From: Oryzicola mucosus
GTDB lineage: Bacteria > Pseudomonadota > Alphaproteobacteria > Rhizobiales > Rhizobiaceae
DNA length: 64,000 nucleotides
Assembly (NCBI RefSeq): GCF_014534685.1
Contig: NZ_JACVVX010000004.1
Location: 372,001 to 436,000 of the forward strand
Direction: 5' to 3'
Positions 11,363-28,531 of this stretch are shown here, piece after piece. A program made the position numbers and the translations under genes. A model generated the notes under the pieces. It searched no databases, was not told where the DNA came from, and saw only the letters and a list, made by a program, of their open reading frames with translations. The first letter of the stretch is position 1. Every line of letters starts with the position of its first letter.

Positions 11363-14300
11363 TCAGCCAGCACGTTCAAGCACATCGATGTAGGTATCCA
11401 CGTGATGCCGTACGCTGTATTTCTCACGAACCATCTCGAAAGCATTTTGCCTCAGCTTTTCGCGAAGCTCAGAATTCTCGATCAGTTCCGTCAATGCGGC
11501 AGTCCATTCCGCAGTCGAATTGTTGACCACCAAGGAGTTGACGCCATTTCTCGCAACATCGCGGTAGGTGTAGACATTCGAAACGATGTTCGGCAAACGA
11601 AGCGCTGCATACTCCAGAAATTTGAGATTGCTTTTGCATCGATTGAAATCATCGTCAACGAGCGGAGTGATACCGATATCCCAATCCACCACTTTGAACA
11701 ACCAGTCCACAAACGGTGCATAATTGTTATTTCTCGGCAAGCCGATGCGTTTCCCAAAAAATGGAGTCTGAGTCTGGAAGGCACCGACCACCTCGACCTC
11801 AACGCGCTTCCCGTACTTTGCCTGTATTTTCGAGATCGCGTCACTGACAACGTGCATGTCCACGCTATGTGACGGCGTGCCGATGTAGCCGATTTTGATT
11901 ACATCGCTCGTCTTCGGCTTAGTCGGCGATGTATCTTCGCCCAGCTTCCACATCTGGTAGTTGAGATAGTTCGGAATAACCCGCACATTTTTGTTCAAAA
12001 GGTCGAACCGCTCTTTCAACGGTTGGGTCGATACGGTGATAAGATCAGCGCTCTTGGCGAGGCTCGTCACCCTCTCCTTCAATTTGCCGATGTCCTTGTT
12101 ATAGCCTCTGGATTTCAGCCCTTCGGCATTCAACAGGTCATCATCGATCTCATAGACAATGCGCTTAGCTTGAGAACGCATCCTGTCAGCCCACGCAGAG
12201 ATCTCGTCTGCCGTCAAAGTTGGGAGATCTCGCTCCACGATGATGGTCGAGGCCTCAGTTTCATGTGGAAGAGTCTGACTGTCACCGACACTGACGTCCC
12301 ACTGTTTTCTCACCCCGGCCTGCATATACGGATGGATCAACCGTACGTAGGCGCTACCGGTGGGCGAACCATCCTTCTGACCGGACGGAATGATGAGCGC
12401 CTTTGGCCTGACGCCCTTTCGAACGCTTTTAGCGCGTAAACGCAGCGCTTCATGAAACACCGTCAATTCGCTGACTGACGCCAGATGAACGCTGTAGCGA
12501 GCCGCGGTCCTGATCGCCGCCTGCTTGCATTCGATCAGAGCGTCCGGATCATCAAGAAGTTTACAGACGCGATCAAAAACAGCATCTTCGTCCTTGGTGT
12601 CGACGACGATGGAATTGTAACCGTCGACAGCATACTCGTCCGCTCCGCCGACGACCGGCAGTACTGGCACGCAGCCGCAAGCCATTCCCTCCAGTCCGGT
12701 CCTGCCAAACGCCTGATAATCGGAAAGGTCAAGAAACACGTCCGAGGTACCAAGAATCTCGGCCACCTGCTGCCGCTTTATGATGTCGTGGTTTATGTAC
12801 GGGAACCCACGCTCAAGTTCCTCGAAGATCGGATCGAACTCCTCGCAGCCAAAGATATGAATCTTGATCTTCTCGCCAAATCTCTGATGCAGGCGTGAGA
12901 GAACCCGCATGGTTCTGGCAGCGCCGCGTCGCGGCGTACGCGGACGGATCATTGCCGAGACGATCAACTCATCGCCACGAGGTTCGGTCGACGGCTTATA
13001 AACCTCATGGTCGATGCTAGGTTCTACCTTACGCACTTCCACATTGTGCTCGGCAAACACCTTTTCCGTAAGCCACCGGGTCTTGGCGAAGCAGAGTGCC
13101 TGAGGCACGAGTTCGTAAGATTCCTTTGCTTGTATCCATTGAGGTTTTGTCGGCTTCCAGAAAAGCGGCTCATAATCCTGAATATAATAGGCTGGAAGAA
13201 CCTCTGGATTTTTATCGCTGATCTTCTTGAGGAGAACAACAGAGGTGAAGATCGTTGATACAACCACGTCATACGACGCCGCTATATCAGCGAGATCGTC
13301 ACCGTCGAACCCCAAGAACAACTGCCGGACGTCGGCTATGTCGTTGTATTGCGACCAATAATACTCGATATCCTCGTTTCTGACAGCGACAGCTGCATTG
13401 GCGCCAATACGGCGCATGCCCATGACTTCCTGCACGACGGAATGAACACCACCGCCGCCGCCGCGAACCGGAAGCAGAAACAGCACGGACAGATCATTGG
13501 CATTTCGGAGCCGCTGACGCTGCTGTTTCCGAACCGCCAATGCATCCACAACGCGCTTTCGGATCGAATCCATAAGGTCGGTGACTTTGACCGATTCGAT
13601 CAAGGCTTCGACGCGTTCGACACCGTGTTTGGCGCGCAAGGCAGCGGCGCCGTCCCGCCCGAGTTTTTTGCGTTTGCCGTGGCCGAAGCTTTTCGATTTG
13701 GCATGGAAAACATAGGCGTCATCGGCGTAGGCAAGTTGGAAGCCCGCATCCGCAGCGCGTATACAATAGTCGTTTTCTTCGCCGTAACCGATGGGAAAGC
13801 TGATTGGGTCCATGAAACCCACCGCATCCACCACCGAACGCCTGATCATGTAGCAAAAACCGTTGACGAATGGCGTTCGCGGATAGATGCGAGCGCTCGC
13901 CTGCGCGACCAACGCAGCCATCTCGTCCGCATTCAGACCATCAGGGATGTCGTTGATGGCGAAACTTCCGTCGTCGGCGTAGAGATGCGGCACGTTTTGC
14001 CACGTCGCAGCATTGGAAAGCGGCCCACATATGCCGATACGTTCATCTGAAAGCATGCAGCGGATCATGCCGGCAAGCCATCCATTGGTGACGACCGTGT
14101 CGCTGTTGAGTGTGATGACGTACTCTGCAGTCGAAGCCATCAAGCCTGTATTGACGGCATTCGTATAACCCTTGTTGACTTCATGCTCTTTCAGCACGAA
14201 GTCGGGTTTGTCGGCACAGAATTCGCGCAGCCACTGTGTGGTTTCGGCATCCGACCCGTCATTGACCACGAAGCTTCGAACCCGCAGGCCATCGTTATGG

Positions 14301-17300
14301 CGCTGGATGGATGCCAGGCAATCCTTGGTGAAATCCAAGGCGTTGTAGACTGGAATGACGACATCGACGTCGTACTGGACGATATCCACGTTACGCCCGT
14401 CGAGCGAAATATTACCTGCTGAGGCGCCCGCCACACCTGGAATGTGCGCATGGTTGCGAGCCTCGATATCGGCATATGCAGCGGCATAATCCTCTGCCAT
14501 GGCGGCACAGTCGCGAGAAGCGCCGAGGCCTTTCTGCCAGCGGTCCACAGCACCAATGGCCTCGATCAGCATCGTCGGCGTGCTGCGAATCGCATCGAGC
14601 GTCTTAAGCACCGCGTCAGCCGTCATCTCTGGAATCGCCCAGCCTGCTTGGCTGTCCTTGATGCGTTGGCCGACAGCCCCAATATCGAAGCCGATGACCG
14701 GCAGGCCGCACGACCACAATTCGGTCAGCGTATGGCAGAAAGTTTCCGGCCAGATCGACAAAACCGCGCCGATATGCGGCTTGATGCGGGCGACCAGCAT
14801 TCCGAACGCATCGCGCTCGTAAGGTCCGTGCAGCACAACGCCTTCAAGGGTTTCTCCACCAGGTCCGGCCTGAACGAGGCTGCCTTGCGCCGAGCCAATG
14901 ATGTGAAACTCGAAGCCGTGTTGGCGGGCGAATGCCGACAGCGCAAAGACAATCTCAGAGCCCTTGGGGGCATCGATGTTACCCGGGAGGAGAATGCGTA
15001 GTTTCTCGCCAGGCTCCAGAGGCGCAGCGAGAAGGCTGAATTTGTCAAAGTCGCGCCCATGCGGGATGATTTCAAACGGCTTGTCGGCAAGATTGGGGTA
15101 ATTTTCGAGGACGATCTCCCTCGCGGAGCTGTCAGTGGTGATGAAGCCGTCGCATTGTGACAGCATCTCGCCAAACATCGCCTTCCAATGGTCAATGCCG
15201 TCTTCGGGAAGCGCGAGGAAATCCCTGACGTCCCAAAGCTCCTTCTTGCATTCGGCATGCGAGGGACTGCACTTGCCCGCATTGTACCGGTTATCGTTTT
15301 CGAGCAGCTTTACACTTGGGCAGACCGAGTAAAAATCATGGAAGGAGAAAATGACCGGGATGTTCAGCGTCTTGGCCTCTTTTACGAGTCCGAGTCCGTG
15401 CCAGGCAATATGGCGGATGTGGACCAGATCGATGGCATAGCGCGTCATCCATAGTGAGACGATGTCGTCATATTCTCTGCTGGTGTGAGGAAACGCATGG
15501 ATACTCGCGCCAAGCATCGCGCGCTCGATCTCGGTGTATACGCCATTCTGGAACAGGAAGAGTTTGATCGTGCTTGAGTTACAGCGCAGGACAAACGTCT
15601 CATACCGCCCATCTATCGCGCCCATGAGGTCCTGGTTTGTTTGGGGGGTACCGCCGGTTTTCGTCGACAGCACATACATGATACGCGGCTTAACCGCGGC
15701 CTGACGGCTTTCCAGCGCCTTCAGCGTCTCGGACACTCTTTCACGAACGAGCTTCAGCGGTTCTGCGCGGACGAACTCGCGCACCTGGCTCGTGTATTCG
15801 GGATAGCGCGCATCGACGACGCTGCGCCCCTGCTGCATCAGTCCGTCCTTTTCAGAGCCGAAACTCGCGGAACGAACGTGATAGATGAACGTCGCGTCAT
15901 CGATGATATGGCGCCAGCCCTTGCGGCCGGCGCGCATGCAGAAATCGTTTTCCTCGCCATAGCCGCGCGGGAAGGCCGCGGCATCGAGCGTGCCGACCTC
16001 ATCGATGCAATCTCGCCGGACATAGAGGCAAAAACCGTTGCCGGTGGGTGCTGTCGGATAAAGCCTCAGCGAGGTCTGTGCGATGGCGCGCGCATAGTCA
16101 TCCAGCGACAAATGAGCCGGCATCTCGTTGGTGCCGCTTTGCGGGACGGAAAACGCGCCCGCATTGTTGGAAACGGCCGTGACGGTTCCCGTCTTCTCCG
16201 TGGAGTAGGCTGCGAACCGCAGCTTGTCCAACCAGTTGGGCGTTACGAGCGTATCGGAATTCAGGAAGACGACATCGGAACGGCCGGCCAGTTCGATGCC
16301 GCGATTGATGGTGCCGGAGAAGCCGAGATTCTTCTCGTTGCGATGAATCTCGACCTGGTCGATGCCACGATATTTTGCCAGCGTGGTCTGAACGCTCGCA
16401 TCGGGGCTGCAGTCGTCGACGACGATCAAACGATAGTTAAGCCTCGTATTGCGAAGAATGGATTGAATACAGGCGTCGGTTTCCTCCGCAGCGTTGTAGA
16501 CCGGGACGATGATGGCCGGCATTTCCGTAGCTTGGCGGAGACGCTCATTGACCCCGGAGAGATTGGCATAACCATCAGCTTGCAAACGGCTTCCCGACAG
16601 CGCTCTGTCGCGCAAGGGCTGCCGAAAAGCGCGCCACCACACGTCGAAGTCGACGCTAGGATAAGGATCATGTCCATTCTGATAGCCATGGCGAAGATAG
16701 TTGATCAGCGGATTATCGTGGATCATCTCGTCGCGATAGCGGGAGAGATACCATTTGGTGTTGAAGGCGGGACCTGGATCCCGGCCTTCGCGAGCGCCAT
16801 GTCGCAGGAAATGCCGCACGGGATCGCCACCGCCACGGGCAACATCAGGGTATTCCGACCGGTACCATTCCGGATCGAACAACCCCGCCCTCACGATCAA
16901 TTTGTGATCGTCCAAGTTGGACAGTTTCGAAAAGGAAGCTGCGATGGCCCCTTCCGCCACACCATTCGCGACATGGCTTTTGTGCTGAGACGCGATATCT
17001 TTTTTCGGCTCCTGAAAGGCAACGATGATGGGTTTTTCCGCAGGCGCCGATCCATTGACGGCGACCGGCTTTTGTCCTGCTTTTTCTCCCAGCGAAAGGA
17101 AATGAAAAAGCGGATTGATCCCGGTACGTGCGATATCGGGATTGGTTTCGAGGTACTGCCTGGTATTGAACCCTGGGTTGGGATTTCGTCGCAGAAGCGC
17201 GCCAAACGTCAGGAAATGCTCCAAAGGGTCCATGCCCAATGCGGCAACGTCCGGATATTGCGCCAAGTACCAGTTGCGGTCGAAGAGGCCCGATGCCTCG

Positions 17301-17332
17301 ATAACGCCGCGTTCGCGATCCACATTCTTCAT
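11363..17332 (-). CDS. Giant five-domain glycosyltransferase (GT2-GT4-GT2-GT4-GT4) with N-terminal repeat module
   Basis: A 1,989-residue protein without a signal peptide. Residues 14-86 and 149-223 hold four copies of a short module (WYLxxYPDV ... DPLxHFL). GT2 domain 1 spans about 272-480 (DDCSPD at 306-311, LNSDT at 357-361, GYGEENDF at 457-464). A GT4-like domain follows at about 548-955 (SFHDFYSVCPS, ETFCHTLTELWSCGLPVIGF). GT2 domain 2 is at about 989-1240 (NDGSD at 1024-1028, LNSDT at 1075-1079, GYGEENDY at 1182-1189). A second GT4 domain is at about 1280-1630 (EGMACGCVPVLP), and a third GT4-like domain at about 1640-1989 (NLKFLEYAALRLPNIVSN). The start at 17332 is chosen for AAAGG upstream; 17350 or 17395 are possible. 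It looks like a processive polymerase adding several linkages. The DNA is less GC-rich than its neighbours. Confidence 0.9.
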   Translation of the reverse strand: MKNVDRERGVIEASGLFDRNWYLAQYPDVAALGMDPLEHFLTFGALLRRNPNPGFNTRQYLETNPDIARTGINPLFHFLSLGEKAGQKPVAVNGSAPAEKPIIVAFQEPKKDIASQHKSHVANGVAEGAIAASFSKLSNLDDHKLIVRAGLFDPEWYRSEYPDVARGGGDPVRHFLRHGAREGRDPGPAFNTKWYLSRYRDEMIHDNPLINYLRHGYQNGHDPYPSVDFDVWWRAFRQPLRDRALSGSRLQADGYANLSGVNERLRQATEMPAIIVPVYNAAEETDACIQSILRNTRLNYRLIVVDDCSPDASVQTTLAKYRGIDQVEIHRNEKNLGFSGTINRGIELAGRSDVVFLNSDTLVTPNWLDKLRFAAYSTEKTGTVTAVSNNAGAFSVPQSGTNEMPAHLSLDDYARAIAQTSLRLYPTAPTGNGFCLYVRRDCIDEVGTLDAAAFPRGYGEENDFCMRAGRKGWRHIIDDATFIYHVRSASFGSEKDGLMQQGRSVVDARYPEYTSQVREFVRAEPLKLVRERVSETLKALESRQAAVKPRIMYVLSTKTGGTPQTNQDLMGAIDGRYETFVLRCNSSTIKLFLFQNGVYTEIERAMLGASIHAFPHTSREYDDIVSLWMTRYAIDLVHIRHIAWHGLGLVKEAKTLNIPVIFSFHDFYSVCPSVKLLENDNRYNAGKCSPSHAECKKELWDVRDFLALPEDGIDHWKAMFGEMLSQCDGFITTDSSAREIVLENYPNLADKPFEIIPHGRDFDKFSLLAAPLEPGEKLRILLPGNIDAPKGSEIVFALSAFARQHGFEFHIIGSAQGSLVQAGPGGETLEGVVLHGPYERDAFGMLVARIKPHIGAVLSIWPETFCHTLTELWSCGLPVIGFDIGAVGQRIKDSQAGWAIPEMTADAVLKTLDAIRSTPTMLIEAIGAVDRWQKGLGASRDCAAMAEDYAAAYADIEARNHAHIPGVAGASAGNISLDGRNVDIVQYDVDVVIPVYNALDFTKDCLASIQRHNDGLRVRSFVVNDGSDAETTQWLREFCADKPDFVLKEHEVNKGYTNAVNTGLMASTAEYVITLNSDTVVTNGWLAGMIRCMLSDERIGICGPLSNAATWQNVPHLYADDGSFAINDIPDGLNADEMAALVAQASARIYPRTPFVNGFCYMIRRSVVDAVGFMDPISFPIGYGEENDYCIRAADAGFQLAYADDAYVFHAKSKSFGHGKRKKLGRDGAAALRAKHGVERVEALIESVKVTDLMDSIRKRVVDALAVRKQQRQRLRNANDLSVLFLLPVRGGGGGVHSVVQEVMGMRRIGANAAVAVRNEDIEYYWSQYNDIADVRQLFLGFDGDDLADIAASYDVVVSTIFTSVVLLKKISDKNPEVLPAYYIQDYEPLFWKPTKPQWIQAKESYELVPQALCFAKTRWLTEKVFAEHNVEVRKVEPSIDHEVYKPSTEPRGDELIVSAMIRPRTPRRGAARTMRVLSRLHQRFGEKIKIHIFGCEEFDPIFEELERGFPYINHDIIKRQQVAEILGTSDVFLDLSDYQAFGRTGLEGMACGCVPVLPVVGGADEYAVDGYNSIVVDTKDEDAVFDRVCKLLDDPDALIECKQAAIRTAARYSVHLASVSELTVFHEALRLRAKSVRKGVRPKALIIPSGQKDGSPTGSAYVRLIHPYMQAGVRKQWDVSVGDSQTLPHETEASTIIVERDLPTLTADEISAWADRMRSQAKRIVYEIDDDLLNAEGLKSRGYNKDIGKLKERVTSLAKSADLITVSTQPLKERFDLLNKNVRVIPNYLNYQMWKLGEDTSPTKPKTSDVIKIGYIGTPSHSVDMHVVSDAISKIQAKYGKRVEVEVVGAFQTQTPFFGKRIGLPRNNNYAPFVDWLFKVVDWDIGITPLVDDDFNRCKSNLKFLEYAALRLPNIVSNVYTYRDVARNGVNSLVVNNSTAEWTAALTELIENSELREKLRQNAFEMVREKYSVRHHVDTYIDVLERAG

Positions 17333-17633
17333 GACACGCCTTTGTCCCATCACCGCGAGTATCGGTGGTAGCCGCGGCCCCTCCGCACGCGCCACCGTTA
17401 CCGGTCAAGATTTTCAAGTCTACATCAGAGTTCGGTCGCCTCATCCGCCTTGCGAATTCAGATGCCTAGACAATTACTCCGGATCCAGGTCCCCGCTTCG
17501 GGAGCAGCTTACAGGAACCGGTAAAAGTCCGACGCCGCATACTCTAAGACCGCACTATACTATACCTCAGCTTCGGCAGAGCGTTATCCGCCCGCTTCTT
17601 CATTTGCGTATACCTTGCGGCATTTCTTCCCGA
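17333..17633. promoter_or_regulatory. Intergenic spacer upstream of the giant glycosyltransferase gene
   Basis: About 300 bases separate this gene from the methyltransferase/coiled-coil gene, which reads the same way. The spacer is more AT-rich than the rest of the window and includes CTATACTATACCTCAG-like sequence around 17556-17573. No gene or hairpin terminator is evident. It may hold a separate promoter, so the two long genes need not share one transcript. Confidence 0.35.
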
Positions 17634-20600
17634 TTATTGGTCGCCTCTGGCTTTTGCCAGTATCGAGTTGGGCTCTCGCCCTTCCTTGGCGCCGAATACC
17701 ACATAATGCAGCAGTGGATCTATCCCCGCCCGCGCCACGTCTTCATAGTGACTGAGATACCACTCCGCATCAAACAACCCGGATTTTCGGACCAGTTCCA
17801 TTTGCCGCTTGAGGCGCATTCTACCTGGCATGAAACGCCACTGTCCGCCATTGAGAAGTGACGCGACAGCATTTCCCATCTCTTTTGCTGCAACGACCTG
17901 CAAATGTTTCAGCTTTGCTGCGCTCTGGCGGGTTTGGGCCTCCAGCCGCGCGACCGTACGGCGGCTCTCGGACTGGTTGTCCGAAATCATTCGTGTCAGC
18001 GTCGCAATCTCTTCGAAACGTTCCTTGAGCTTGGCCTCCAGCCGATCATTCTCGGCTGCCGCCTTTTCCTTCGCCTCGCGAAGTCCCGAAGCAACCGACC
18101 GCGTTTCCTCAATCTCGCCCTTCAACGCATCTATCTGATCGAGTTGCGCCTGGAGTTTCATCGCCATGTCTTTGTGGGCTGCTTCGTCAGCCGCAGTTTT
18201 TGCCTGCTTGCTTTTCAGATCGGCAAAGAGGACCTCGACATGTTCTTTCAAACCGTCGGCCACTTTCCTGCTCTCGTCCTGCAGGGCAGTCATCCGCTTG
18301 ATTTCATTCCGCGCTTCCGATAACTCGGCCGCGGTCTGTTCGGTCTCGAGCTGGCGTTGGGCGAGAGCACTTTCGGTGTGCGACAGCTTATCCCGCAAGA
18401 GGACAAGTTCCCTCGAGCTGACGCCGAGACGCTGATTTTCCTCTTCCAGCCGGGCAATGTCCTGCCGTAACGCCTGCGCCTCATCCTGCAACTTGCGGAA
18501 CGCCTGCTCGTGGTCGGCAAGTTTGACTTCGATTGCCTGTCGCTCATCGCGCGCCGCTTCGAGCTCGTTGGACAGCCGCTCGACGCTGATCTGCTCATGA
18601 TGCAGCAGCGTTTCCAGTTCGCCGCGTCGCCATTCCGCATTCGAACGTTCCTGACGGGCCATCATCAGCTCTTGCCGGATGGATTCGACATACTCCCGTT
18701 CTTGTCCGAGAAGCGATTCCAGTTCTCCCCGGCGCCACTCGGTATCGGCATATGTTTTATGAAGCTTGCCGAGCTCTTCCTGCTTTCGGGCGATTTTTTC
18801 CTGGTGCTCCGCCGAGACGGCTTCGAGCTCTGCCTGAACCTTCGTCAGCTTGTCTTGAATCGCCTTCCTCTGACGTTGAACCTCGGTAAGCTCGTGGGTC
18901 AGCCTGGAGAGATCGGCTTCTCTCTCGCCGAGCTGAAACTTGGTCTGTTCTAGTTCAAGCGTGCGCTTTTCCAACGCGTCCGAACGCTCCATCAGTTCAG
19001 CAGATCGGGCCGTATTGTCGCTGAGCGATTGCTGAAGTTCGCCCTCAACCTTGGTCAGCTTGTCCTGGATCGCCTTCCTCAAGCGACGAACCTCTTGATG
19101 TTCCTCGCTCAGCCTGGAGAGGCTGGCATCTCTTTCTTCAAGCGCCGATTTGGTCTTCTGGAGCTCGGCATTTCGCTCGTCCAGTTCGCGCAGACGTTCG
19201 GCAAGCTCGGCTGACTGGCTTGTGACGTTGTTCTGCGCCGCCAGCAACTCGCCCTCGACCTTGGTCAGCTTGTCCTGGATCGCCGTCTTGCGGCGCCGAA
19301 CCTCGTTATATTCGCCGTTCAGTTTGGAGAAGGCGGCGTCTTTCTCTGTCAGAGAGGATTTGGCCTGCGCGAGTTCGGCAGACTGGGCCGCAAAATTGCT
19401 CTGTAACGACAACAGGTCGGTTTCGACCTCTTTCAGCTTTTCCCTGATTTCCGTCTTCTGCCGGGAGACCTCTTTGTACTCCTCGTTCAGCTTGGACAGA
19501 CGTTCGTCACGCTCCAAGACCTCGTCGCGGGCGCTTTGCAGCTCGGCTTCGCGCAGGCGCCCCTCATTCAGCCGCTCCAGGCGTTCAGCCTTATACTGAA
19601 CTTCGCCGGCCGCTGCCTTGCGCAATTCAGCCTCGGCCTTGGTCAACTGCTCCTGAAGGGAAGCATTCTGCCTGCGGTTTTCGTCATATTCTTCGCTCAA
19701 TTTTGCCAGTTGGGCATCGCGTTGATCGAGCTTGAGCTTGACGTCTTCAAGCTCCACGGAGCCAGCGGACCGCACGGCTTCAAGTTCAGCCTCTAGCGTC
19801 GCAAGGCGATCCTGAATGGCCGCTTTCTTCTGCAGAGTGGCCTGATGTTCGGCGTTCAGCAGTTGAAACGATGACTCTTTTTCTTGAAGCGAGAAGTTCA
19901 AATCGTTGATTTGGTGCGTCCGCTCGTCAATGAGAGCCTGAAGGTCAGCGGCCTCGTCGCGGATAACGGCTTTGTCTTTCCGCTCAGCCGCTAAGTCGTC
20001 ATCCAAATTTTTCAAAGCTTCATCGCGTTGCGCGATCTCTTTTTTCAGCTCATCCAGTCTTTTTTCTGAATTTTCCGCTTCAAAAGCATCGGCGCAGGAT
20101 CGGCCCAGACGCACAAAAATATCGCGGACCATTCGCCGGTCGGCATCGTTGGCCCCGATGGTGAAGAGTTCTCTCAAACGAGCCGTCTGGTTTGTGCCGA
20201 CACCGAGCACCCCCAGCCCATGACCGTGGACGAATTCGAAATTCGGATATTTGGTCCGCAACTGCTCGAAAAGACGGAAAACGCCAAAATCCTTCTCGCG
20301 AACATTCGTGTCATGCATCATCACGACGGCGCGTTTGGAGAGTTTCGGAAGCCAGGCTTCAAAGTCGTGCTCCACCGCCTCGAAGGTGTGCAGCCCGTCA
20401 ATATGGAGAAGATCAATCATTCCATCAGAAAAGTGCTTGAGCGCGTCGTCGAATGTGCTTTTCACCAGCCGCGAGAATCCGGAATAATATTTGTCGTTGT
20501 GGCTTCGAACCTGCTCAAAGACATCTTCGTCATAGAAGCCCGCGTGGACGTCACCCTTCCAGGTATCGACGCCAAAGCAGCGCGCATCGATTTCGAGACG

Positions 20601-20858
20601 CTCAACCGCCTGGCACATGGAAAAATAGGACACGCCTGTGTGGACGCCCAATTCCACGACGACATCGGGCTGAAGGGCCTCAATCATCCAAAATGCAAAT
20701 GGTACATGCTCTTGCCAGGCCGAGCGAGCCATATAGCGCGGCCGCATGAAGGCGATACGCGACATCACATTTGCAAGGACTGCATCATGGGCGGCGCGGG
20801 AAGCAGCCATCCCATCCTGGTCTGCTGGGGGTGTATTCAGTGAGGATCTCGTTGCCAT
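17634..20858 (-). CDS. SAM methyltransferase fused to a very long coiled coil and a C-terminal repeat module
   Basis: A 1,074-residue protein. Residues about 25-225 form a class I methyltransferase of the Methyltransf_24/CmcI-like type found in glycan loci: VVELGVHTGVSY (67-78, SAM-binding glycine motif), HIDGLHTFEAVEHDF (152-166) and HDTNVREKDFGVFRL (182-196). Residues about 262-990 are almost pure heptad coiled coil rich in Glu, Lys, Leu, Arg and Gln, with internal repeats. Residues 995-1025 are basic and hydrophobic, a possible membrane or protein contact. Residues 1026-1064 are one copy of the module carried by the giant glycosyltransferase (FDAEWYLSHYEDV). The order capping enzyme plus coiled coil resembles the chain-length ruler WbdD, but no kinase domain is present. 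The start at 20858 lacks a good ribosome-binding site; 20810 is an alternative. Confidence 0.85.
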   Translation of the reverse strand: MATRSSLNTPPADQDGMAASRAAHDAVLANVMSRIAFMRPRYMARSAWQEHVPFAFWMIEALQPDVVVELGVHTGVSYFSMCQAVERLEIDARCFGVDTWKGDVHAGFYDEDVFEQVRSHNDKYYSGFSRLVKSTFDDALKHFSDGMIDLLHIDGLHTFEAVEHDFEAWLPKLSKRAVVMMHDTNVREKDFGVFRLFEQLRTKYPNFEFVHGHGLGVLGVGTNQTARLRELFTIGANDADRRMVRDIFVRLGRSCADAFEAENSEKRLDELKKEIAQRDEALKNLDDDLAAERKDKAVIRDEAADLQALIDERTHQINDLNFSLQEKESSFQLLNAEHQATLQKKAAIQDRLATLEAELEAVRSAGSVELEDVKLKLDQRDAQLAKLSEEYDENRRQNASLQEQLTKAEAELRKAAAGEVQYKAERLERLNEGRLREAELQSARDEVLERDERLSKLNEEYKEVSRQKTEIREKLKEVETDLLSLQSNFAAQSAELAQAKSSLTEKDAAFSKLNGEYNEVRRRKTAIQDKLTKVEGELLAAQNNVTSQSAELAERLRELDERNAELQKTKSALEERDASLSRLSEEHQEVRRLRKAIQDKLTKVEGELQQSLSDNTARSAELMERSDALEKRTLELEQTKFQLGEREADLSRLTHELTEVQRQRKAIQDKLTKVQAELEAVSAEHQEKIARKQEELGKLHKTYADTEWRRGELESLLGQEREYVESIRQELMMARQERSNAEWRRGELETLLHHEQISVERLSNELEAARDERQAIEVKLADHEQAFRKLQDEAQALRQDIARLEEENQRLGVSSRELVLLRDKLSHTESALAQRQLETEQTAAELSEARNEIKRMTALQDESRKVADGLKEHVEVLFADLKSKQAKTAADEAAHKDMAMKLQAQLDQIDALKGEIEETRSVASGLREAKEKAAAENDRLEAKLKERFEEIATLTRMISDNQSESRRTVARLEAQTRQSAAKLKHLQVVAAKEMGNAVASLLNGGQWRFMPGRMRLKRQMELVRKSGLFDAEWYLSHYEDVARAGIDPLLHYVVFGAKEGREPNSILAKARGDQ
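18830..19499 (-). repeat. Tandem coding repeats of 56, 70 and 70 codons within the coiled coil
   Basis: Unit boundaries at the L/F-S-K/R-L motif fall at 19499, 19331, 19121 and 18911, giving unit lengths of 168, 210 and 210 bases, followed by a partial fourth unit. All lengths are whole multiples of seven codons, so the heptad register is kept. Stretches of identical DNA remain: 27 bases match between 19048-19074 and 19258-19284, exactly 210 bases apart, and a diverged copy lies at 18838-18864, again 210 bases away. Each unit contains the K/R-x-A-I-Q-D-K-L-T-K-V core. The pattern shows internal duplication. Confidence 0.85.
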
Positions 20859-21135: not shown

Positions 21136-22413
21136 TCAGGGAAGCAATTGCGGCGGCAAAACAGCGGTCGCCGCGTTGACCAGTGTAAATCCTCCATCTG
21201 GCGAACTCACCGTGAGTTGCGGGTTGGATTGCACGTCATAGGAGAGTCTATCCAATGGGATCGAAATCAAAAGGCCGCTGTCATTTTCAACGCTGGGAAA
21301 TTGTCTGGAGACGTCACCGCGTGAAAAACGTTCTACGAGAAAGCCCTCGATCGAGTTCCCGCCAAGAGCTACGGCAAAGGACTGCGGGGCTTCGCCACGC
21401 GGCTTGAGCGCCCATCCTCTCAACTTCAACATGCCGTCCTCGATCGCGATGCTCTCCAGCCGCCCCTGCCCCTCTCCCTTCTTTAAGACAGGACGTAGAG
21501 GGGCAAGAGGTTCCAAGTTCTCATCGAGATGGACCAGCCGCTTAGGACAGCCGGCTTCCAGCAGCCTGCTGCGTAGGCCGCTCATCTCCTGTCGTGTCGC
21601 TTTAACCAGCCACGAAGGCGCAGGATCGTAGACATCGTTGAGGTCGTGTGCTGAATAAAAACGATCATCGCGCACGGCTTTGGACGTCGTGGCCCGTCCC
21701 CTCGGTTGTTTTTTGTGGTCGAACTCCGCCTTGGATTTCACCACATAATGATTCAGCCGCAACTGGGACCAGTGAACGGTCTGGCTAAGCCCGGCGCCGT
21801 GGCGGGGATGGCTGAGAACCGGTGCGCCATTCCCATGACGCATGTCGAAGTCCTGCTTCAATCTAAAGACGTGCGGATTGTCTCCGGTGTCCAACACTGC
21901 CGTTGTCCTGACGATACTCTTATAGTGATGATTGATCGCGTGGCGTTCTTTCGCACGACGAACAAACCGCTCAATAACCATTCCCGTTCCGGGGACATCT
22001 CGAAATGAGGAGCCATAGGTAGCCCAGTTGAGTGCGATCGCACCAATATGCTCATCGACGATGCCGAGAAAATCCGGAATAGAATTGCAATCCGCAGATG
22101 GAAAGATAAACTCATCCGCGTCGATGAAGGCCAGCCAATCCGCCGACTCTTTGTATCGTCCAAGTATCTCGGAATAGGCGGAAAGTTGGGGCGGGCTCCC
22201 CGCTGTTCCTTGATAAGGCATAAACGTCACGATGCCCAGATTTTGCAACGCCGAAAGAAGTTCCAGCGACCCGTCGGAACTTCCATTTTCTGCGATAATG
22301 AAATTCTCGACACCCATCGCCCGATGGAAGGCCAGCCATTCGAGAATGTATGGACCTTCATTCTTGAAGATGGCGGCAATGGCAATTTTCGATTTCTTCG
22401 GTGAACCGATCAT
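21136..22413 (-). CDS. GT2-like glycosyltransferase (Glyco_tranf_2_4 / GT92-like) with C-terminal beta domain
   Basis: A 425-residue protein. The N-terminal part has AIFKNEGPYILEWLAFHRAMG and IIAENGSSDGS, which is the pattern of the GT2_4/GT92 group, then FIDADEF as the metal-binding D-x-D (about residue 100) and a His-rich region (HWSQLRLNHYVVKS). Residues from about 315 onward look like a separate beta-rich domain (LKLRGWALKPRGEAPQSF) that could bind glycan. The enzyme should act in the cytoplasm on a nucleotide-sugar. It is followed 277 bases later by the coiled-coil gene and preceded by the two-domain glycosyltransferase gene on the same strand, which suggests a shared transcript with the rfb genes. 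Donor and acceptor are unknown. Confidence 0.82.
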   Translation of the reverse strand: MIGSPKKSKIAIAAIFKNEGPYILEWLAFHRAMGVENFIIAENGSSDGSLELLSALQNLGIVTFMPYQGTAGSPPQLSAYSEILGRYKESADWLAFIDADEFIFPSADCNSIPDFLGIVDEHIGAIALNWATYGSSFRDVPGTGMVIERFVRRAKERHAINHHYKSIVRTTAVLDTGDNPHVFRLKQDFDMRHGNGAPVLSHPRHGAGLSQTVHWSQLRLNHYVVKSKAEFDHKKQPRGRATTSKAVRDDRFYSAHDLNDVYDPAPSWLVKATRQEMSGLRSRLLEAGCPKRLVHLDENLEPLAPLRPVLKKGEGQGRLESIAIEDGMLKLRGWALKPRGEAPQSFAVALGGNSIEGFLVERFSRGDVSRQFPSVENDSGLLISIPLDRLSYDVQSNPQLTVSSPDGGFTLVNAATAVLPPQLLP

Positions 22414-22516: not shown

Positions 22517-24922
22517 TCATCGACCAGCGTCCATAGTCGTGGGCCAGACCCGCTTTCTCACTGCTGACAATGAAAAATCCTCGCGGTCCAGCGTCAAGCT
22601 TGGGGAGTAGTACGGATCGTTGGCCAGAGACCATCGGCCAAGCATAAAGTCGGCTTCGGCGTTGAACCGGTCTTGCTTCTCGAAATTGTCTTCCGCGCCG
22701 CGACTTTCGCTTTCCAGATGATAAAGCTCGGCAAAAGGCGTCCAGACGTTGAGATATCCCGCTTCCCTCACCTTCAGGCAGAAATCGACATCGTTGAAGG
22801 CAATGGCGAGCCTGGCTTCCTCCAGCCCGCCGACCTGCTCATAAATCGCCTTGCGGACGACAAGGCAGGCGCCGGTTACCGCAGACAGGTTCTGCACCAT
22901 ACGAAGGCGGGAAAAATAGCCTTCGTGGTAGCGCGGGAAGGATTTGTGCGAATGGCCTGCGACACCGCCGATGCCAAGGATCACCCCCGCATGCTGGATG
23001 GTATCATTGGCGTAATAGAGCTTCGCACCCACACAACCGATATCGGGTTGTTGCGCCCACGACACCATTTCGGTGAGCCAATCCGGCGAAATGACCTCGA
23101 TGTCGTTATTGACAAGCGCCACGATGGAGCCGTTCGCCTGTGACACGGCGGAGTTGTTGATCGCCGAAAAGTTGAACGCACCGCGATAGGGAAGCACACG
23201 CACTTTGGGATCAGTGACGACCGCGCCCAAATAGGCCTTCGTCTCCGGCTCCACGGAATCATTATCGACGATCAGAATTTCATAGCGGGAGTAGCTCGTC
23301 TTCTGCTGGATCGAGTCCACGCAGTTCCGCAAGAGCTCCCACCGGTCCCGCGTCGGGATGATGATGCTGACCAGCGGCGGCGGTTCTGAAACGGCATGCA
23401 GGGTCCGGTAGACGGCCGCGCCCGGAACGGCTTCGACCTTTGCATCGATCTTCAATCGGGCGAGATGTTCTTCCAAAGCCCGCTTGCCCGCTTCACGCGC
23501 ATAGCTTTTCTCCGCCCCATCCAGCGCCGTCGACCCGTCAAGGGCGCGCCAATGGTAGAGGATTTTCGGGATGTGATGGATGTTTGCGGGATCGACGCGC
23601 TCGAAGATGCGGAGGTTTAAGTCGAAATCCTGGCTGCCTTCGAACCCTGGGCGCCACGCACCAACGGCCCGCAGCGTTTCTGTGCGATAGACAGTGAGAT
23701 GGTTGAAATAATTCTGCGACCGCAGCATTTCGCGGGAGAATTCCGGCTTGAAATAGGGCTCGTAGCGCACGCCGTTGCCGGCGATCTTGTCCTCGTCGGA
23801 ATAAATGATCTCGGCATCCGGATGCTGCCCGACGAGCAAGGCCACCTCGGCAAGCGCGGTGGGCGCCAACAGATCGTCATGGTCAAACAGTGCCGTCCAT
23901 TCGCCCGAGACGAGTTCCAGTGCGGAGTTGCTGGCCTTGGCAATACGACCGTTTTCAGCCCGAAGAGCCAGCTTGATGCGCGGTTCGCCGCCCGCCAGTT
24001 CCGCCAGAAGCGGCCGCACATGCGGCATGCTGGAGCAGTCGTCGGCGATGCAGAGTTCCCAGTTTTCGTAAGCCTGGGCGACCACGCTGTCCACGGCGGC
24101 GCGCAACACGTCCTCCGGCGTGTTGTAGACCGGCATGACGATGGAGATCAGCGGCTTGCTTGCCAGTCCCGCGAGACGGCGCTTCATCAATTCCTGCTCG
24201 GCCGGCCCGAAGGTGTCGTTGCGCTCGATCCAACGCTGATAGTCGACGGCAGCGAATTGCCCTCCCTGATCTATCCGGCGCAGATCGGCGGCGAGTTTGC
24301 GCAATCCACCATGTCGCAAGGTTCTCACTACCAGCGAAAGGCTGCTCGCGATCGGCTGATTGCCGGTTTGGCGTGCAACCAACGCGCCGAGCGCCAGCCG
24401 CATGTAATATTCCGGCCGCGTCAACCTGCGCAGAGCAGCGGAGCGGTAGGAGAAAACCGCATCCTTGCTACCGGGATCGAGCAGAACACGTCGCGCGCCG
24501 GAAGTCAGCAGCAGGTTCACAGCGGCGGTCGTTGTGCTGAAAGCGGACCGGCGCAGGGCTGAAACGCCGGAACTGCGCACTCCGGTATCGACCCAGGCGG
24601 AAGGTGCGGTGCTGTCGCGCAGCCCTTTGAGCCCGCGTAGCTTAAGGCGGTAATGGCCAGACCGCAGCCAGGACTGCGCCGTCCACGACACTTCGAAATA
24701 GGCGTCTTCATCGACCACGCGCCAGGAGCGCGCTTCCTGGCCGACCTGTTCAAGCCCGGCCATCGGCTTGAGCACACAGGTGTAGCCGACATAACTCCGC
24801 AGCCGCGATGCAAAGCGCGCCATACCCGACCGCTGCGGTGTTGCAGCGGATGTCGCTCGGTCACGCGGCTGCGCCCTGTTCGGTTCAAGAGGTTTAATCT
24901 GCGCATCCGGTGGGAAGGACAT
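22517..24922 (-). CDS. Two-domain GT2 glycosyltransferase (rhamnosyltransferase-like)
   Basis: An 801-residue protein. Residues 1-250 are a region without clear family features. GT2 domain 1 begins near 257 (ISIVMPVYNTPEDV, ADDCSS, then FDHDD at 346-350 as the D-x-D site, SDEDK). GT2 domain 2 begins near 517 (VSIIIPTRDRWELL, VDNDS, VNNDIEV, FNDVDFCLKVREAGY). This tandem layout is common in O-antigen and rhamnan synthases. The ATG at 24922 is chosen because AGAGGGGAAG lies a few bases upstream; ATG 24949 and TTG 24964 in frame are alternatives. It starts 60 bases after rfbD on the same strand, so dTDP-rhamnose supply and use are linked. It is probably a rhamnosyltransferase, inferred from context only. 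Confidence 0.85.
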   Translation of the reverse strand: MSFPPDAQIKPLEPNRAQPRDRATSAATPQRSGMARFASRLRSYVGYTCVLKPMAGLEQVGQEARSWRVVDEDAYFEVSWTAQSWLRSGHYRLKLRGLKGLRDSTAPSAWVDTGVRSSGVSALRRSAFSTTTAAVNLLLTSGARRVLLDPGSKDAVFSYRSAALRRLTRPEYYMRLALGALVARQTGNQPIASSLSLVVRTLRHGGLRKLAADLRRIDQGGQFAAVDYQRWIERNDTFGPAEQELMKRRLAGLASKPLISIVMPVYNTPEDVLRAAVDSVVAQAYENWELCIADDCSSMPHVRPLLAELAGGEPRIKLALRAENGRIAKASNSALELVSGEWTALFDHDDLLAPTALAEVALLVGQHPDAEIIYSDEDKIAGNGVRYEPYFKPEFSREMLRSQNYFNHLTVYRTETLRAVGAWRPGFEGSQDFDLNLRIFERVDPANIHHIPKILYHWRALDGSTALDGAEKSYAREAGKRALEEHLARLKIDAKVEAVPGAAVYRTLHAVSEPPPLVSIIIPTRDRWELLRNCVDSIQQKTSYSRYEILIVDNDSVEPETKAYLGAVVTDPKVRVLPYRGAFNFSAINNSAVSQANGSIVALVNNDIEVISPDWLTEMVSWAQQPDIGCVGAKLYYANDTIQHAGVILGIGGVAGHSHKSFPRYHEGYFSRLRMVQNLSAVTGACLVVRKAIYEQVGGLEEARLAIAFNDVDFCLKVREAGYLNVWTPFAELYHLESESRGAEDNFEKQDRFNAEADFMLGRWSLANDPYYSPSLTLDREDFSLSAVRKRVWPTTMDAGR

Positions 24923-24982
24923 TATCTTCCCCTCTGAAGTTTCTAACATCACCTGCCTCGACAAGTGCAGGCAGTTTCAAGC

Positions 24983-25867
24983 TCAGACCCTCACCAAGCG
25001 CTCGACAACATAGTCCGCAGATATCCGCCAGTCGGGAGCGCGCCAGCCATAGGTGTCGAACAATTTGTCGGTCGAAAGGCAGGAATTGGCCGGCCGCTGC
25101 GCCTTGGTCGGGTAATCCGACGTCGCAATGTCGCGAACATCGGCCGTCGGGCCGCCCAACCGGCCGCTGGTTTCCAGAACGTGGCGGGCAAATCCGCTCC
25201 AGTTGGTCTTTCCGGTTCCAACGAGATGGAACACGCCAAAACCGTCCGTTCCTTTGGTCAAGCGATCTGATCTGGCAATGTGAAGGACGGCATCGGCGAT
25301 GTCCAAGGCAGAGGTCGGGTTGCCCCACTGGTCGCCGACGACCGTCAGTTCGTCGCGATCCGCCGCAAGACGCAGCATGGTCTTGACGAAGTTCTTGCCA
25401 AACGGGCTGTAGACCCAGGCCGTGCGCAGGATGACATGGCGCGCATTGGCTTCAGCAACGGCTCTCTCACCTTCAAGCTTGGTGCGCCCATAGACGCCGA
25501 TCGGGCCTGTCGGGTCGCTTTCGAGATACTCACCGTCCTTGTTGCCGGCAAAGACATAATCGGTGGACAGATGGATGATGGGGATATCCGCTTTTGCTGC
25601 CGCGCGCGCAACGGCGCCTGCCCCTTCGGCATTCACCGCATGGGCGAGATCGCGCTCATCCTCCGCAAGGTCGACGGCGGTGTAAGCCGCAGCCGACACG
25701 ACGATGTCGGGACTGATGTCAGCGATAACCCGTTCGACGCTCGCCGGATCGGCAAGGTCGAACTCTGGACGGCCGACGGTGACCACCTCGACGCCGTCGA
25801 GTGTTCCTGCACGCTCGATCAGGCTGGTGACGACCTGTCCTTCACGGCCGGTGACCAGGATTTTCAT
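24983..25867 (-). CDS. rfbD: dTDP-4-dehydrorhamnose reductase
   Basis: A 294-residue short-chain-type reductase that makes the last step of dTDP-L-rhamnose synthesis using NAD(P)H. Motifs include the N-terminal VTGREGQV glycine loop, STDYVFAG, the catalytic YGRTK (Y-x-x-x-K) near residue 128 and [14 protein letters not shown]. Length is typical. Its start overlaps the rfbB stop by four bases (ATGA). It is the last of the four consecutive rfb genes before the two-domain glycosyltransferase gene. Confidence 0.95.
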
Positions 25868-26931
25868 GCGACGTCCTTCGTCACGGTGCCAAGGCGCTCG
25901 CCGGAATATTTTTCACGGCGCAGCGGACCCCACCACCATTCGTTGGCGAGATACCAGTCGATGGTCCGTTCCAGGCCGGTCTCGAATGTCTCCTGCGGCT
26001 TCCAGCCGAGTTCGCGCTCGATCTTGGAGGCGTCGATGGCATAACGCCGGTCATGGCCTGGACGATCGTTCACATAGGTGATGAGATCAGCGTAGCTGCC
26101 GGTTCGAAGAGGACGCTTCTTGTCGAGAATGGCGCAGATGCTGCGCACCACATCGAGATTGGTACGCTCGGAACGGCCGCCGACATTGTAGCTCTCGCCG
26201 TTCTTGCCGGTGGTAGCGATGAGGGCAAGCGCGCGGGCGTGATCTTCGACAAACAGCCAGTCGCGCACATTCGCCCCCTTGCCGTAGATCGGCAGCGATT
26301 TGCCATCCAGGGCATTGAGGATGACCAACGGGATGAGCTTTTCGGGGAAATGGAACGGCCCGTAATTGTTCGAGCAATTCGAAATCACGACGGGCAGTCC
26401 ATAAGTCTCGTGCCAGGCGCGAACGAGATGGTCGGATGCCGCCTTCGACGCCGAATAGGGCGAGGACGGCGCGTAAGGCGTCTCCTCGGTGAAGATGCCG
26501 CTGTCGAAGGGCAGGTCGCCAAAAACCTCGTCGGTTGAGATGTGATGAAAGCGGAAGCGCGATTTCGCGGGCTCAGCCAGAGCGCGCCAATAGGTCAGCG
26601 CTGCATCGAGCAGGCGGAAGGTTCCCACCACATTGGTCTCGATGAATTCGCCCGGGCCGTCGATGGAACGGTCGACATGGCTTTCGGCGGCCAGGTGCAT
26701 GACCACGTCGATCTCGTTGTTCCGCAGCGTCTCGAGAATCGTCGGGGTGTCGCCGATATCCGCCTGGACGAACCGGTAGTTCGGATAATTCTCGATCTGG
26801 CGCAGCGAAGCCGGGTTGCCGGCATAGGTCAGCTTGTCGACATTGACGACGGTGTTTGCGGGATCGGAACAAAGATGGCGGCATACTGCCGATCCGATAA
26901 ATCCTGCACCGCCGGTAACAAGAAAATTCAT
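25864..26931 (-). CDS. rfbB: dTDP-glucose 4,6-dehydratase
   Basis: A 355-residue extended short-chain dehydrogenase. The NAD-binding motif is [10 protein letters not shown] at residues 5-14. The catalytic set STDEVFGDL and YSASK (Y-x-x-x-K) and the dTDP-sugar loop [14 protein letters not shown] are all present. It converts dTDP-glucose to dTDP-4-keto-6-deoxyglucose. The start at 26931 is preferred over the ATG two codons earlier at 26937, because AAGGA then sits nine bases upstream rather than three. It lies between rfbC and rfbD on one strand with tight spacing. Confidence 0.95.
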
Positions 26932-26949
26932 GTGCATCCGTCCTTGCGA

Positions 26950-27504
26950 TCACTCAAAGGTTTCGGCGGCGGCAAGGAACGGCGCGGCGCTGTCCTTTGC
27001 CGACAATTGCAGTTCCGAAGCAGGCAGCGGCCATTCGATGCCGATCTGAGGATCGTCGAACCTAATCGACCTGTCATGCGCAGGCGAATAAAGTTCTGTT
27101 ACCTTGTAGATCACTTCGGTATCCGGCACGAGCGTGACGAAGCCATGGGCAAAGCCCTTGGGGACCAGAATCTGGTTCCATTTCTCCGCCGAGACCTCAA
27201 GCGAAATCCATTGTCCATAGGTCGGCGAACTCTTGCGGATGTCGACCGCGACATCGAGGATCGCACCCTTAATGACGCGAACGAGCTTGTCCTGCGCCAT
27301 ATCCGGCAATTGATAGTGCAGACCGCGCAACACGCCCTTAGCGGCTGAATAAGAGTGGTTGTCCTGCACGAAGGTCAGGTCGATACCGGCTTCCTTCAGG
27401 ATCTTGCTGTTGTAGGTCTCGGAAAAGAACCCGCGATCGTCGCCGAACTTCTTGGGGACGATCTCGAAGACGCCATTCAGGCCCAGGCTTCTGATTTCGG
27501 TCAT
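26950..27504 (-). CDS. rfbC: dTDP-4-dehydrorhamnose 3,5-epimerase
   Basis: A 184-residue cupin-fold enzyme. It has the family segments FSETYN, FVQDNHSYS, GVLRGLHYQ and VPKGFAHGFVTL, with the His-Asp catalytic environment expected for RmlC. It epimerises C3 and C5 of dTDP-4-keto-6-deoxyglucose. The start at 27504 has AGGA seven bases upstream and gives the usual N-terminus; longer in-frame starts run into rfbA. It lies 18 bases before rfbB. Confidence 0.95.
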   Translation of the reverse strand: MTEIRSLGLNGVFEIVPKKFGDDRGFFSETYNSKILKEAGIDLTFVQDNHSYSAAKGVLRGLHYQLPDMAQDKLVRVIKGAILDVAVDIRKSSPTYGQWISLEVSAEKWNQILVPKGFAHGFVTLVPDTEVIYKVTELYSPAHDRSIRFDDPQIGIEWPLPASELQLSAKDSAAPFLAAAETFE

Positions 27505-27512
27505 GAAAATTC

Positions 27513-28388
27513 CTATGCCAGTTCGCGAACGCGGCGGCGCAGATACATCGCGTACTCGTTCTTGCCCAATTGCTGGGCTCTCGCCAGCACCTGATCGCCG
27601 CTCAACCAACCCAGTTCAAGTCCGATCTCCTCGGGACAGGCGATCTTGACGCCCTGACGATGCTCGATCGTGCGCACGAAGGACGATGCCTCGTGCAGGC
27701 TGTCGACCGTACCGGTATCGAGCCAGGCATACCCGCGCCCAAGCTGATGGACATGCAGGGCGCCGCGTTCGAGATAGACATTGTTGATAGCGGTGATTTC
27801 AAGCTCGCCACGCTCGGACGGCTCGATCGATGCTGCGATATCGACGACCTCGTTGTCGTAAAAATACAGGCCGGTCACCGCCCAGTTGGACTTGGGCTCG
27901 GTCGGCTTTTCCTCGATGCTCAAGGCCTTGCCGGTATCCTTCTCGAAGCTGACCACGCCGTAACGTTGCGGATCCTCGACGTGGTAGGCAAACACCGACG
28001 CCCCCGATGTGCGGGCGGCCGCAGACTTGCAGATGGTGGAAAGCCCTTCGCCGAAATAGATGTTGTCGCCCAGAATCATCGCGACATTGCCGTCGCCAAT
28101 GAACTCGCGCCCGATGATGAACGCTTCGGCCAAGCCGTTCGGCTTGGGCTGTTCGGCATAGGTCAGAGAAATGCCGAAGTCGCTGCCGTCGCCGAGAAGT
28201 CCTTTGAAGACGGGCAGATCGCGTGGCGTTGAGATGATGAGGATCTCGCGAATGCCGGTCAGCATCAGCACGCTGAGCGGATAGTAGATCATCGGCTTGT
28301 CGTAAACGGGGAGCGCCTGCTTCGAAACCGCAATGGTGAGGGGGTAAAGCCGGGTGCCGCTACCACCCGCCAGGATAATGCCTTTCAT
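27513..28388 (-). CDS. rfbA: Glucose-1-phosphate thymidylyltransferase
   Basis: A 291-residue nucleotidyltransferase that makes dTDP-glucose from dTTP and glucose 1-phosphate. It begins [18 protein letters not shown], with the G-x-G-T-R-L nucleotide-binding loop, then [30 protein letters not shown] and YAWLDTGT. The start at 28388 matches the family; the seven codons before it are not conserved. It is the first gene of rfbA-rfbC-rfbB-rfbD, and the 143-base spacer upstream should contain the operon promoter. Confidence 0.95.
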
Positions 28389-28531
28389 TCGCAACCTCGC
28401 ATTGCGCATCTGAGCCTCGGGAGCAAAGATGCGGATTTTGTCTCGATCATTATGCCGACTATCGGCCTGGTGACGGCAGTTCAGTCACCACATTTATGTA
28501 ACCCACTGATGTCATTGCAGGCGAAAGCGTT

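What the first reader, a model, noticed from the sequence alone, without database searches (positions are those of the whole stretch)
17634..20858. Possible methyl-capping chain-length ruler: methyltransferase on a roughly 700-residue coiled coil
The protein has a glycan-type SAM methyltransferase at residues 25-225, an almost uninterrupted heptad coiled coil at about 262-990, a basic/hydrophobic segment, then a 39-residue module. The E. coli O8/O9a protein WbdD also joins a capping methyltransferase to a coiled coil that sets polymannan length. The present protein has no kinase domain and a much longer coil; at about 0.15 nm per residue the coil could reach roughly 100 nm if continuous. I infer that it caps and measures the polymer made by the adjacent giant glycosyltransferase.
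Basis: partly seen in the sequence, partly recalled or inferred. Interest (0 to 1): 0.85.

Follow-up and report, generated by a model that had tools for sequence, protein, structure and literature searches.

The report
Extra-long, repeat-built sugar-chain ruler enzyme
A bacterium carries a probable sugar-capping enzyme mounted on an unusually long rod-like coil built from repeated blocks, and a close relative differs by exactly one block, which suggests a ruler for surface-sugar chain length that evolution can lengthen or shorten in steps.

Summary
The protein is real: window 17634-20858, minus strand, 1074 aa. It has a Methyltransf_24 domain (E 3e-25), a heptad coil at 255-994 (740 residues; z 16.5 against shuffles), a basic/hydrophobic linker, and a 35-residue module that also occurs four times in the adjacent giant glycosyltransferase. 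The locus has rml genes and an ABC exporter. The architecture is that of coiled-coil chain terminators of ABC-exported O-polysaccharides (WbdD type).

New points. (1) The coil contains diverged 70-residue units; a congener's coil is longer by exactly one unit, and a further assembly holds two near-identical loci differing by one 28-residue unit. (2) This coil (740) and its congener's (810) are over twice the next longest (319) of 44 genes measured. (3) In 6 relatives methyltransferase and coil are fused to homologues of the window's GT2-GT2 protein, a likely partner. (4) Wzt lacks the cap-reading domain of known terminated systems; none was found in the assembly. (5) The methyltransferase shows no sequence match to WbdD.

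Capping and measuring remain inferred.

The parts
17634..20858 (-). methyltransferase-coil protein, 1074 aa (P0001)
   Evidence: ORF and translation; purifying selection against the congener, dN/dS 0.15
20079..20768 (-). class I SAM methyltransferase domain, about residues 31-260
   Evidence: PF13578 68-184, E 3.1e-25; 34-row family alignment A3; profile finds CmcI and MeT1 in the PDB at E about 1e-3
17877..20096 (-). heptad coiled coil, residues 255-994 (740 residues)
   Evidence: helices in a low-confidence model; coil dN/dS 0.18
18438..20021 (-). stretch with diverged 70-residue (10-heptad) repetition, residues 280-807
   Evidence: lag 70: 125 identical of 458, score 431; column-shuffled null maximum 180 in 60
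19175..19176 (-). junction of residues 561/562 where the congener L026 carries one further 70-residue unit
   Evidence: 210-bp tandem array in L026
17775..17876 (-). basic/hydrophobic linker, residues 995-1028, possible membrane-associated segment
   Evidence: sequence; role inferred
17670..17774 (-). C-terminal module, residues 1029-1063 (family consensus FDTAWYLSNYPDVARAGLNPLLHYLRFGAKEGRDP)
   Evidence: hmmsearch; no Pfam match up to E 10
11363..17395 (-). giant glycosyltransferase, 2010 aa (P0002)
   Evidence: Glycos_transf_2 in 2 stretches, Glycos_transf_1 in 3
16664..17284 (-). four copies of the same module at the N-terminus of the giant glycosyltransferase (residues 38-244)
21136..22413 (-). 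GT92-like glycosyltransferase (P0004)
22517..24964 (-). GT2-GT2 protein (P0003); homologues are fused to methyltransferase and coil in six relatives
24983..28409 (-). rmlD, rmlB, rmlC, rmlA: dTDP-L-rhamnose supply
   Evidence: rmlD and rmlB by NCBIfam and Pfam, rmlC by PF00908, rmlA by PF00483 and its place
2837..3628 (+). Wzm-type ABC exporter membrane subunit
   Evidence: PF01061 E 3.2e-12
3628..4356 (+). Wzt-type ATPase, 242 aa, no C-terminal cap-reading domain
   Evidence: PF00005, no PF14524; start set by the 242-aa congener protein

Best explanation
A chain-terminating ruler of an ABC-exported, probably rhamnose-containing polysaccharide. The C-terminal linker and module hold the protein at the membrane with the polymerising glycosyltransferases (GT2-GT2 protein and/or the giant enzyme). 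A parallel coil of about 110 nm holds the SAM methyltransferase away from them. When the growing end reaches the methyltransferase it is O-methylated and elongation stops. Coil length sets chain length, and it evolves by gain and loss of in-register tandem units. Shown: the parts, the coil, the repeats, the one-unit difference, fusion in relatives, purifying selection. Inferred: oligomer, membrane and partner binding, capping, measuring, the sugar.
For: Architecture. Locus with rml genes and Wzm/Wzt, same arrangement in the congener. In 6 of 44 distinct family genes (L057, L092, L093, L094, L095, L097) methyltransferase and coil are one chain with a homologue of the window's GT2-GT2 protein; others carry other glycosyltransferase or RgpF domains. 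Coil length by one scorer: 740 here, 810 in the congener, next longest 319. +70 residues in the congener is the only coil gap over 735 aligned coil residues; +28 between two near-identical loci. a, d and g positions are the most conserved between congeners (0.81, 0.81, 0.79 against 0.69-0.75); coil dN/dS 0.18. g-to-e' charge pairs fit a parallel in-register coil: 25 attractive, 8 repulsive; reached by 1 of 1000 shuffles of all g residues and 0 of 2000 shuffles of the paired ones; highest of seven i/i+5 classes. In WbdD, lengthening or shortening the coil changes chain length (PMC5082667 and PMC6286764, passages).
Against: PMC11231755 (passages) says all terminated examples have a cap-reading domain on Wzt; here Wzt has none and no match was found in the 98.46%-complete assembly. 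The CBM-less Klebsiella O1/O2 exporters set length by the exporter:synthesis ratio instead (same passages). No glycan structure is at hand, so a terminal methyl is unproven. The methyltransferase has no sequence match to WbdD. The g-e' signal is weak in 266-439 (480 of 2000 shuffles reach it), middling in 691-990 (101 of 2000), and one intrahelical class (c to g, +4) is as strong; repeats make pairs non-independent. The AlphaFold models are poor (pLDDT 49.6 and 55.3) and monomeric, so a folded-back coil is not excluded. Outside the window's clade coil gaps are often not multiples of 7 (36 and 18 in L095/L097; none of six in L065/L052).
Confidence: 0.58

Rival explanations
1. The methyltransferase decorates the polymer but does not set length; length is set by the ratio of synthesis to export, as in CBM-less Klebsiella O1/O2 systems. 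The coil is a tether that lets the enzyme reach residues along the chain.
For: No cap-reading domain on Wzt or found elsewhere in the assembly. The CBM-less state goes with the window's group: PF14524 in 0 of 5 Wzt scanned in that group against 11 of 12 outside it. A pyruvyltransferase-like gene (9027-10298) offers another possible end group.
Against: Does not explain why the heptad register is kept over 740 residues, or why both internal coil gaps found in the window's group are whole heptads. A mere tether needs no fixed length.
Confidence: 0.22
2. The coil is mainly a scaffold that gathers several glycosyltransferases at the membrane; its length reflects binding sites, not distance.
For: The C-terminal module is shared with the giant glycosyltransferase (4 copies) and with other proteins: 48 module copies in 23 ORFs of the set searched, two ORFs with five copies being counted twice through overlapping stretches. 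Coil units resemble one another, so each could bind one partner.
Against: In the six relatives fused to the GT2-GT2 homologue the coil segments are only 36-172 residues. Positions b, c, e and f are the least conserved between congeners, the opposite of what binding surfaces would show.
Confidence: 0.1
3. The coil folds back on itself (SMC-like hairpin), so methyltransferase and C-terminus are close and no long distance is measured.
For: Coil matches to SMC and Rad50 models, far below their cut-offs; possible helix breaks near 364-369, 496-507 and 812-815, and pLDDT under 50 at 615-619 near the middle.
Against: g-e' charge pattern of a parallel in-register coil; no SMC hinge match up to E 0.01; helix drawn through the middle (508-811) in the low-confidence model. 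Matches to SMC models are usual for long coils (recalled).
Confidence: 0.1

Closest known systems
WbdD of E. coli O9a/O8 and Klebsiella O3/O5
   Same: N-terminal methyltransferase, coil, C-terminal membrane and polymerase-recruiting part, ABC exporter locus (PMC3482155, PMC5082667, PMC11231755, passages). The O8 form also lacks a kinase.
   Different: No sequence match of the methyltransferases; coil about 5 times longer (WbdD about 20 nm); different C-terminal module; Wzt without cap-reading domain; coil with visible repeated units.
E. coli O101/O162 methyltransferase
   Same: One methyltransferase domain plus coil; prerequisite for O-methylation, read as terminal capping; ruler proposed (PMC13168486, passages).
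   Different: Sequence not compared here; other sugars; coil length not stated in the passages seen.
Klebsiella ORF6-O7 and WbbB-O12
   Same: Terminator and polymerising GTs in one chain with a coil between (PMC11231755, passages), as in the window's relatives L057, L092-L095, L097.
   Different: ORF6-O7 has a kinase domain and WbbB caps with Kdo; in the window the methyltransferase-coil and the GTs are separate proteins.
MeT1 (mycobacterial methylmannose polysaccharide 1-O-methyltransferase) and CmcI
   Same: Nearest solved methyltransferases: CmcI E 9e-4, MeT1 E 1.1e-3 by profile; MeT1 also tops a fold search with a low-confidence model, E 2e-3. MeT1 blocks the 1-OH of a sugar chain with methyl (PMC9883506, passages).
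   Different: Chains of 236 and 231 residues, too short for a long coil; MeT1 acts at C1, the reducing end.

Membership tests
Coiled-coil chain terminators of ABC-dependent polysaccharides (WbdD type) | transferase domain at one end of an extended coil | tested here: met
   PF13578 and coil 255-994; capping activity itself not testable
Coiled-coil chain terminators of ABC-dependent polysaccharides (WbdD type) | locus with Wzm/Wzt exporter | tested here: met
   2837-3628 and 3628-4356, same cluster in the congener
Coiled-coil chain terminators of ABC-dependent polysaccharides (WbdD type) | cap-reading domain (Wzt_C) on the exporter ATPase | tested here: not met
   no PF14524 in Wzt; 0 matches in the own assembly, the same search rings in 2 of 14 control genomes
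Coiled-coil chain terminators of ABC-dependent polysaccharides (WbdD type) | coil length determines glycan length | not testable with these tools
   needs glycan length measurements
Coiled-coil chain terminators of ABC-dependent polysaccharides (WbdD type) | C-terminal part recruits polymerase and membrane | not testable with these tools
   shared module in the GT and a basic linker are only suggestive
WbdD proper | methyltransferase homologous in sequence to WbdD | tested here: not met
   34-sequence profile against the PDB lists 9 sequences up to E 10; WbdD is not among them
WbdD proper | parallel trimer | tested here: inconclusive
   g-e' charges favour parallel; oligomer number not tested
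Methyltransf_24 (PF13578) | score above the curated cut-off | tested here: met
   89.5 bits against 26.3

The most novel reading that the evidence does not exclude
A repeat-coded, adjustable molecular ruler: the coil behaves like a minisatellite whose 28- or 70-codon units (whole numbers of heptads) are gained and lost without breaking the register, so a lineage, perhaps even one population, changes its surface-polysaccharide length in fixed steps; and it works without the exporter's cap-reading checkpoint.
Probability: 0.3. Interest if true: 0.8.

Novelty: new variant of a known kind. Interest (0 to 1): 0.6.

Why it matters
In the papers seen here the coil-ruler model rests on E. coli O9 WbdD, with engineered coil lengths, and on Klebsiella O12. 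Here nature offers steps of known size: same locus, one unit more or less. Measuring chain length in the two congeners and in the 28-residue pair would test whether polymer length scales with coil length, at coil lengths about five times that of WbdD. It would also show whether a terminator can set length when the exporter has no cap-reading domain; the passages seen of PMC11231755 give no such case.

Tried and rejected
WbdD membership by sequence: rejected. Kinase domain: no room between methyltransferase (to about 260) and coil (from 255), none found. Giant glycosyltransferase as the recurring partner: the whole enzyme was seen only in the congener among the loci fetched (single GT domains of it do match elsewhere). 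Heptad-multiple gaps as a rule for the whole family: rejected; both internal coil gaps in the window's group are multiples of 7 (3 pairs aligned, one without internal gap), but not those of L095/L097 or L065/L052. Shared module as a specific pairing code: not supported; module proteins also lie within the fetched stretch of methyltransferases that lack it (L007, L027, L052, L056, L068, L077), and none was found beside some that have it (L059, L060, L078). AlphaFold of the methyltransferase domain: pLDDT 49.6, too poor for fold claims; the fold search on it has no hit at E 0.001 or better. Full-length model: pLDDT 55.3. Hagelueken 2015 and Mann 2019 are not held: known only from what other papers say. 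Tandem-repeat variation of terminator coils: not seen in the listings (listings and abstract starts only; capped lists in 48 and 81); of the six papers opened I read passages only.

Rows dropped before counts: L081 (part of the L026 gene) from the 44; the G971 match, cut at a contig end, was not fetched as a stretch or measured, so 44 of 45 distinct genes found; L063 and L096 are cut at an end but counted. L081, L096, L063, L073 and L074 were left out of the tree. L100's Wzt (cut by my stretch) and weaker ABC hits in L055 and L068 were left out of the Wzt_C count.

Full report
OBSERVATION. The protein exists as described, on the minus strand. Residues 68-184 match Methyltransf_24 (E 3.1e-25). 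A home-made heptad scorer, whose threshold is reached by 0.47% of residues of globular proteins from these loci, marks one segment, 255-994. Heptad power is 16.5 standard deviations above shuffles. LIVMF make up 63% of a and 52% of d positions against 6-9% elsewhere (the register was fitted to the sequence, so this is partly by construction). The C-terminal module sits at 1029-1063.

HOST. G028 is in the same genus and its contig has the same length, 428,128 bases, as the record of Corticibacterium sp. UT-5YL-CI-8 that holds L026, so the window is probably from Corticibacterium (inferred).

COIL MADE OF UNITS. Self-comparison gives a best lag of 70 residues (125 of 458 identical, score 431). 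Of the 14 best lags listed, 11 are multiples of 7 (70, 126, 56, 196, 98, 140, 35, 14, 168, 266, 63); 249, 179 and 319 are not, and all three leave 4, as one register shift would give. Sixty nulls that shuffle residues within heptad columns reach at most 180. Lags divisible by 7 are expected of any coil, so the score, not the divisibility, is the evidence. The L026 protein is 1144 aa, 80% identical, and differs in the coil by one insertion of exactly 70 residues; its gene carries a 210-bp tandem array (TRF score 707), while the window gene shows only an unrelated 11-bp row. The extra unit is 90% identical in DNA to the next one. No other gap falls in the 735 coil residues aligned. For comparison the giant glycosyltransferase of the same pair has three gaps of 1-2 residues and the GT2-GT2 protein four of 1-5. 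dN/dS is 0.18 in the coil and 0.08 in the methyltransferase.

A SECOND CASE. Genome G993 (same family; completeness 100, contamination 9) holds the locus twice, on contigs C11 and C16. The methyltransferase-coil proteins are 509 and 537 aa; all 509 aligned residues are identical and the only difference is one 28-residue unit (84 bp). Base by base I found no difference in 9,000 + 7,900 bases on the two sides; the few mismatches BLAST reports lie between these, in the part that holds the repeat. 8-kb pieces about 19 and 87 kb beyond the gene were 100% identical. This may be two coil-length forms in one culture, a duplicated region, or an assembly error in a repeat; the reads would tell. Two further genomes of that genus had no match.

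HOW FAR THIS HOLDS. Other coils with clear repeats: L064 lag 56 (score 207), L068 lag 35 (132). L064's second lag is 55, L065's best is 32 and L027's 135, not multiples of 7. Of seven pairs aligned, gaps behind the methyltransferase were 70, 28 and 21 (multiples of 7), but 36 and 18 in L095/L097 and none of six in the poorly aligned L065/L052; two pairs had no internal gap.

FAMILY. Searches with the methyltransferase domain, own genome counted, matched 15 of 199 genomes of the family (E 1e-20), 16 of 397 of the order (E 1e-30), 8 of 385 of the class (E 1e-40) and 8 of 394 of the family at E 1e-70; with P0001, 2 of 2 of the genus. The search for related loci gave 3 named loci, one from an actinobacterium (Leifsonia, L028). 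Of 44 distinct genes measured the two of the window's genus (740, 810) are followed by L064 (319). The own genome has a paralogue, 471 aa, with a coil segment of 206 and no module. In a 40-row tree the window protein falls in a 9-row group (support 94/85, under the tool's star limit) whose coils are all 150 residues or more, if the two segments of L050 (55+96) and of L051 (142+56) are added; 2 of the 31 other rows reach 150 (L092, L068). Genus searches around L050 and L064 found no second member (1 of 26 and 1 of 8 genomes).

PARTNERS. Homologues of the window's GT2-GT2 protein (22517-24964) are fused behind methyltransferase and coil in L057, L092, L093, L094, L095 and L097 (E 1e-123 to 4e-190). 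Pfam shows methyltransferase plus two Glycos_transf_2 stretches in L057, methyltransferase plus glycosyltransferase domains in L055, L056 and L062, and plus RgpF in L066. Unfused homologues lie within the fetched stretch in L050, L052, L059, L060, L064, L078, L099 and L100 as well as in the window and its congener. Many other stretches show none. This is the strongest sequence evidence that the methyltransferase-coil works with polymerising enzymes.

EXPORTER. Of 12 Wzt proteins scanned outside the window's group 11 have the cap-reading domain PF14524 (E 1e-17 to 1e-39; L077 lacks it); of 5 inside (window, congener, L050, L027, L099) none has. Window and congener are not independent, and lineage is confounded. 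The window assembly has no PF14524 match; the same search rings in 2 of 14 control genomes. PMC11231755 (passages) states that all terminated examples have this domain and that CBM-less O1/O2 exporters couple length to export. So the ruler idea needs the coil to work without this checkpoint, or is wrong here.

METHYLTRANSFERASE. The 34-row profile finds CmcI (E 9e-4), MeT1 (1.1e-3) and an O-methyltransferase (3r3h, 2.1e-3) among 9 PDB sequences up to E 10; not WbdD. A single-sequence search also named MeT1, weakly (E 0.3). The fold search agrees on MeT1 (E 2e-3), from a model too poor to lean on.

ORIENTATION. g-to-e' charges: 25 attractive, 8 repulsive in 94 pairs; 1 of 1000 and 0 of 2000 shuffles as good. 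By part: 266-439 480 of 2000, 440-690 13 of 2000, 691-990 101 of 2000. Repeats make pairs non-independent, and an intrahelical class (c to g, +4) is as strong.

VERDICT. The known kind is the coiled-coil terminator of ABC-exported polysaccharides; this is a variant with another methyltransferase, no cap-reading exporter, the longest coils of the set (with its congener), and a coil that changes by whole units. Whether it caps and measures is for the bench.

Noticed in passing
window 16664-17284 and 17670-17774; L007:13105-16443 and others: A 35-residue module (consensus FDTAWYLSNYPDVARAGLNPLLHYLRFGAKEGRDP) occurs 48 times in 23 ORFs of the glycan loci searched (two ORFs with five copies counted twice) and three stretches holding it have no Pfam match up to E 10.
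   Followed up: partly
L007:9445-10860 (own genome, contig C1): Paralogue with a 206-residue coil and no C-terminal module, about 2.2 kb from a 1112-aa RgpF/GT61 protein with three modules.
   Followed up: partly
L099 and L100 (G993 contigs C11 and C16): Two copies of one region with no base difference outside the part holding the coil repeat in what was compared, and one 84-bp unit more in one copy; assembly listed with contamination 9.
   Followed up: partly
window 20859-21135 and 17396-17633: Both gaps flanking the gene are strongly conserved in the congener (215 of 278 and 205 of 245 columns), suggesting promoters or other signals.
   Followed up: no
window 9027-10298: Polysaccharide pyruvyltransferase-like gene in the cluster, a possible second end group or decoration.
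   Followed up: no
window 6598-7746 +: Nitroreductase-family ORF, matched in two stretches, inside the polysaccharide cluster.
   Followed up: no
window 21136-22413: GT92-like protein is much less conserved between congeners (55%) than the six neighbours compared (77-98%).
   Followed up: no
L075:7580-10444: Relative with the order changed: modules at the N-terminus, methyltransferase at 676-880, coil segment at the C-terminus.
   Followed up: no
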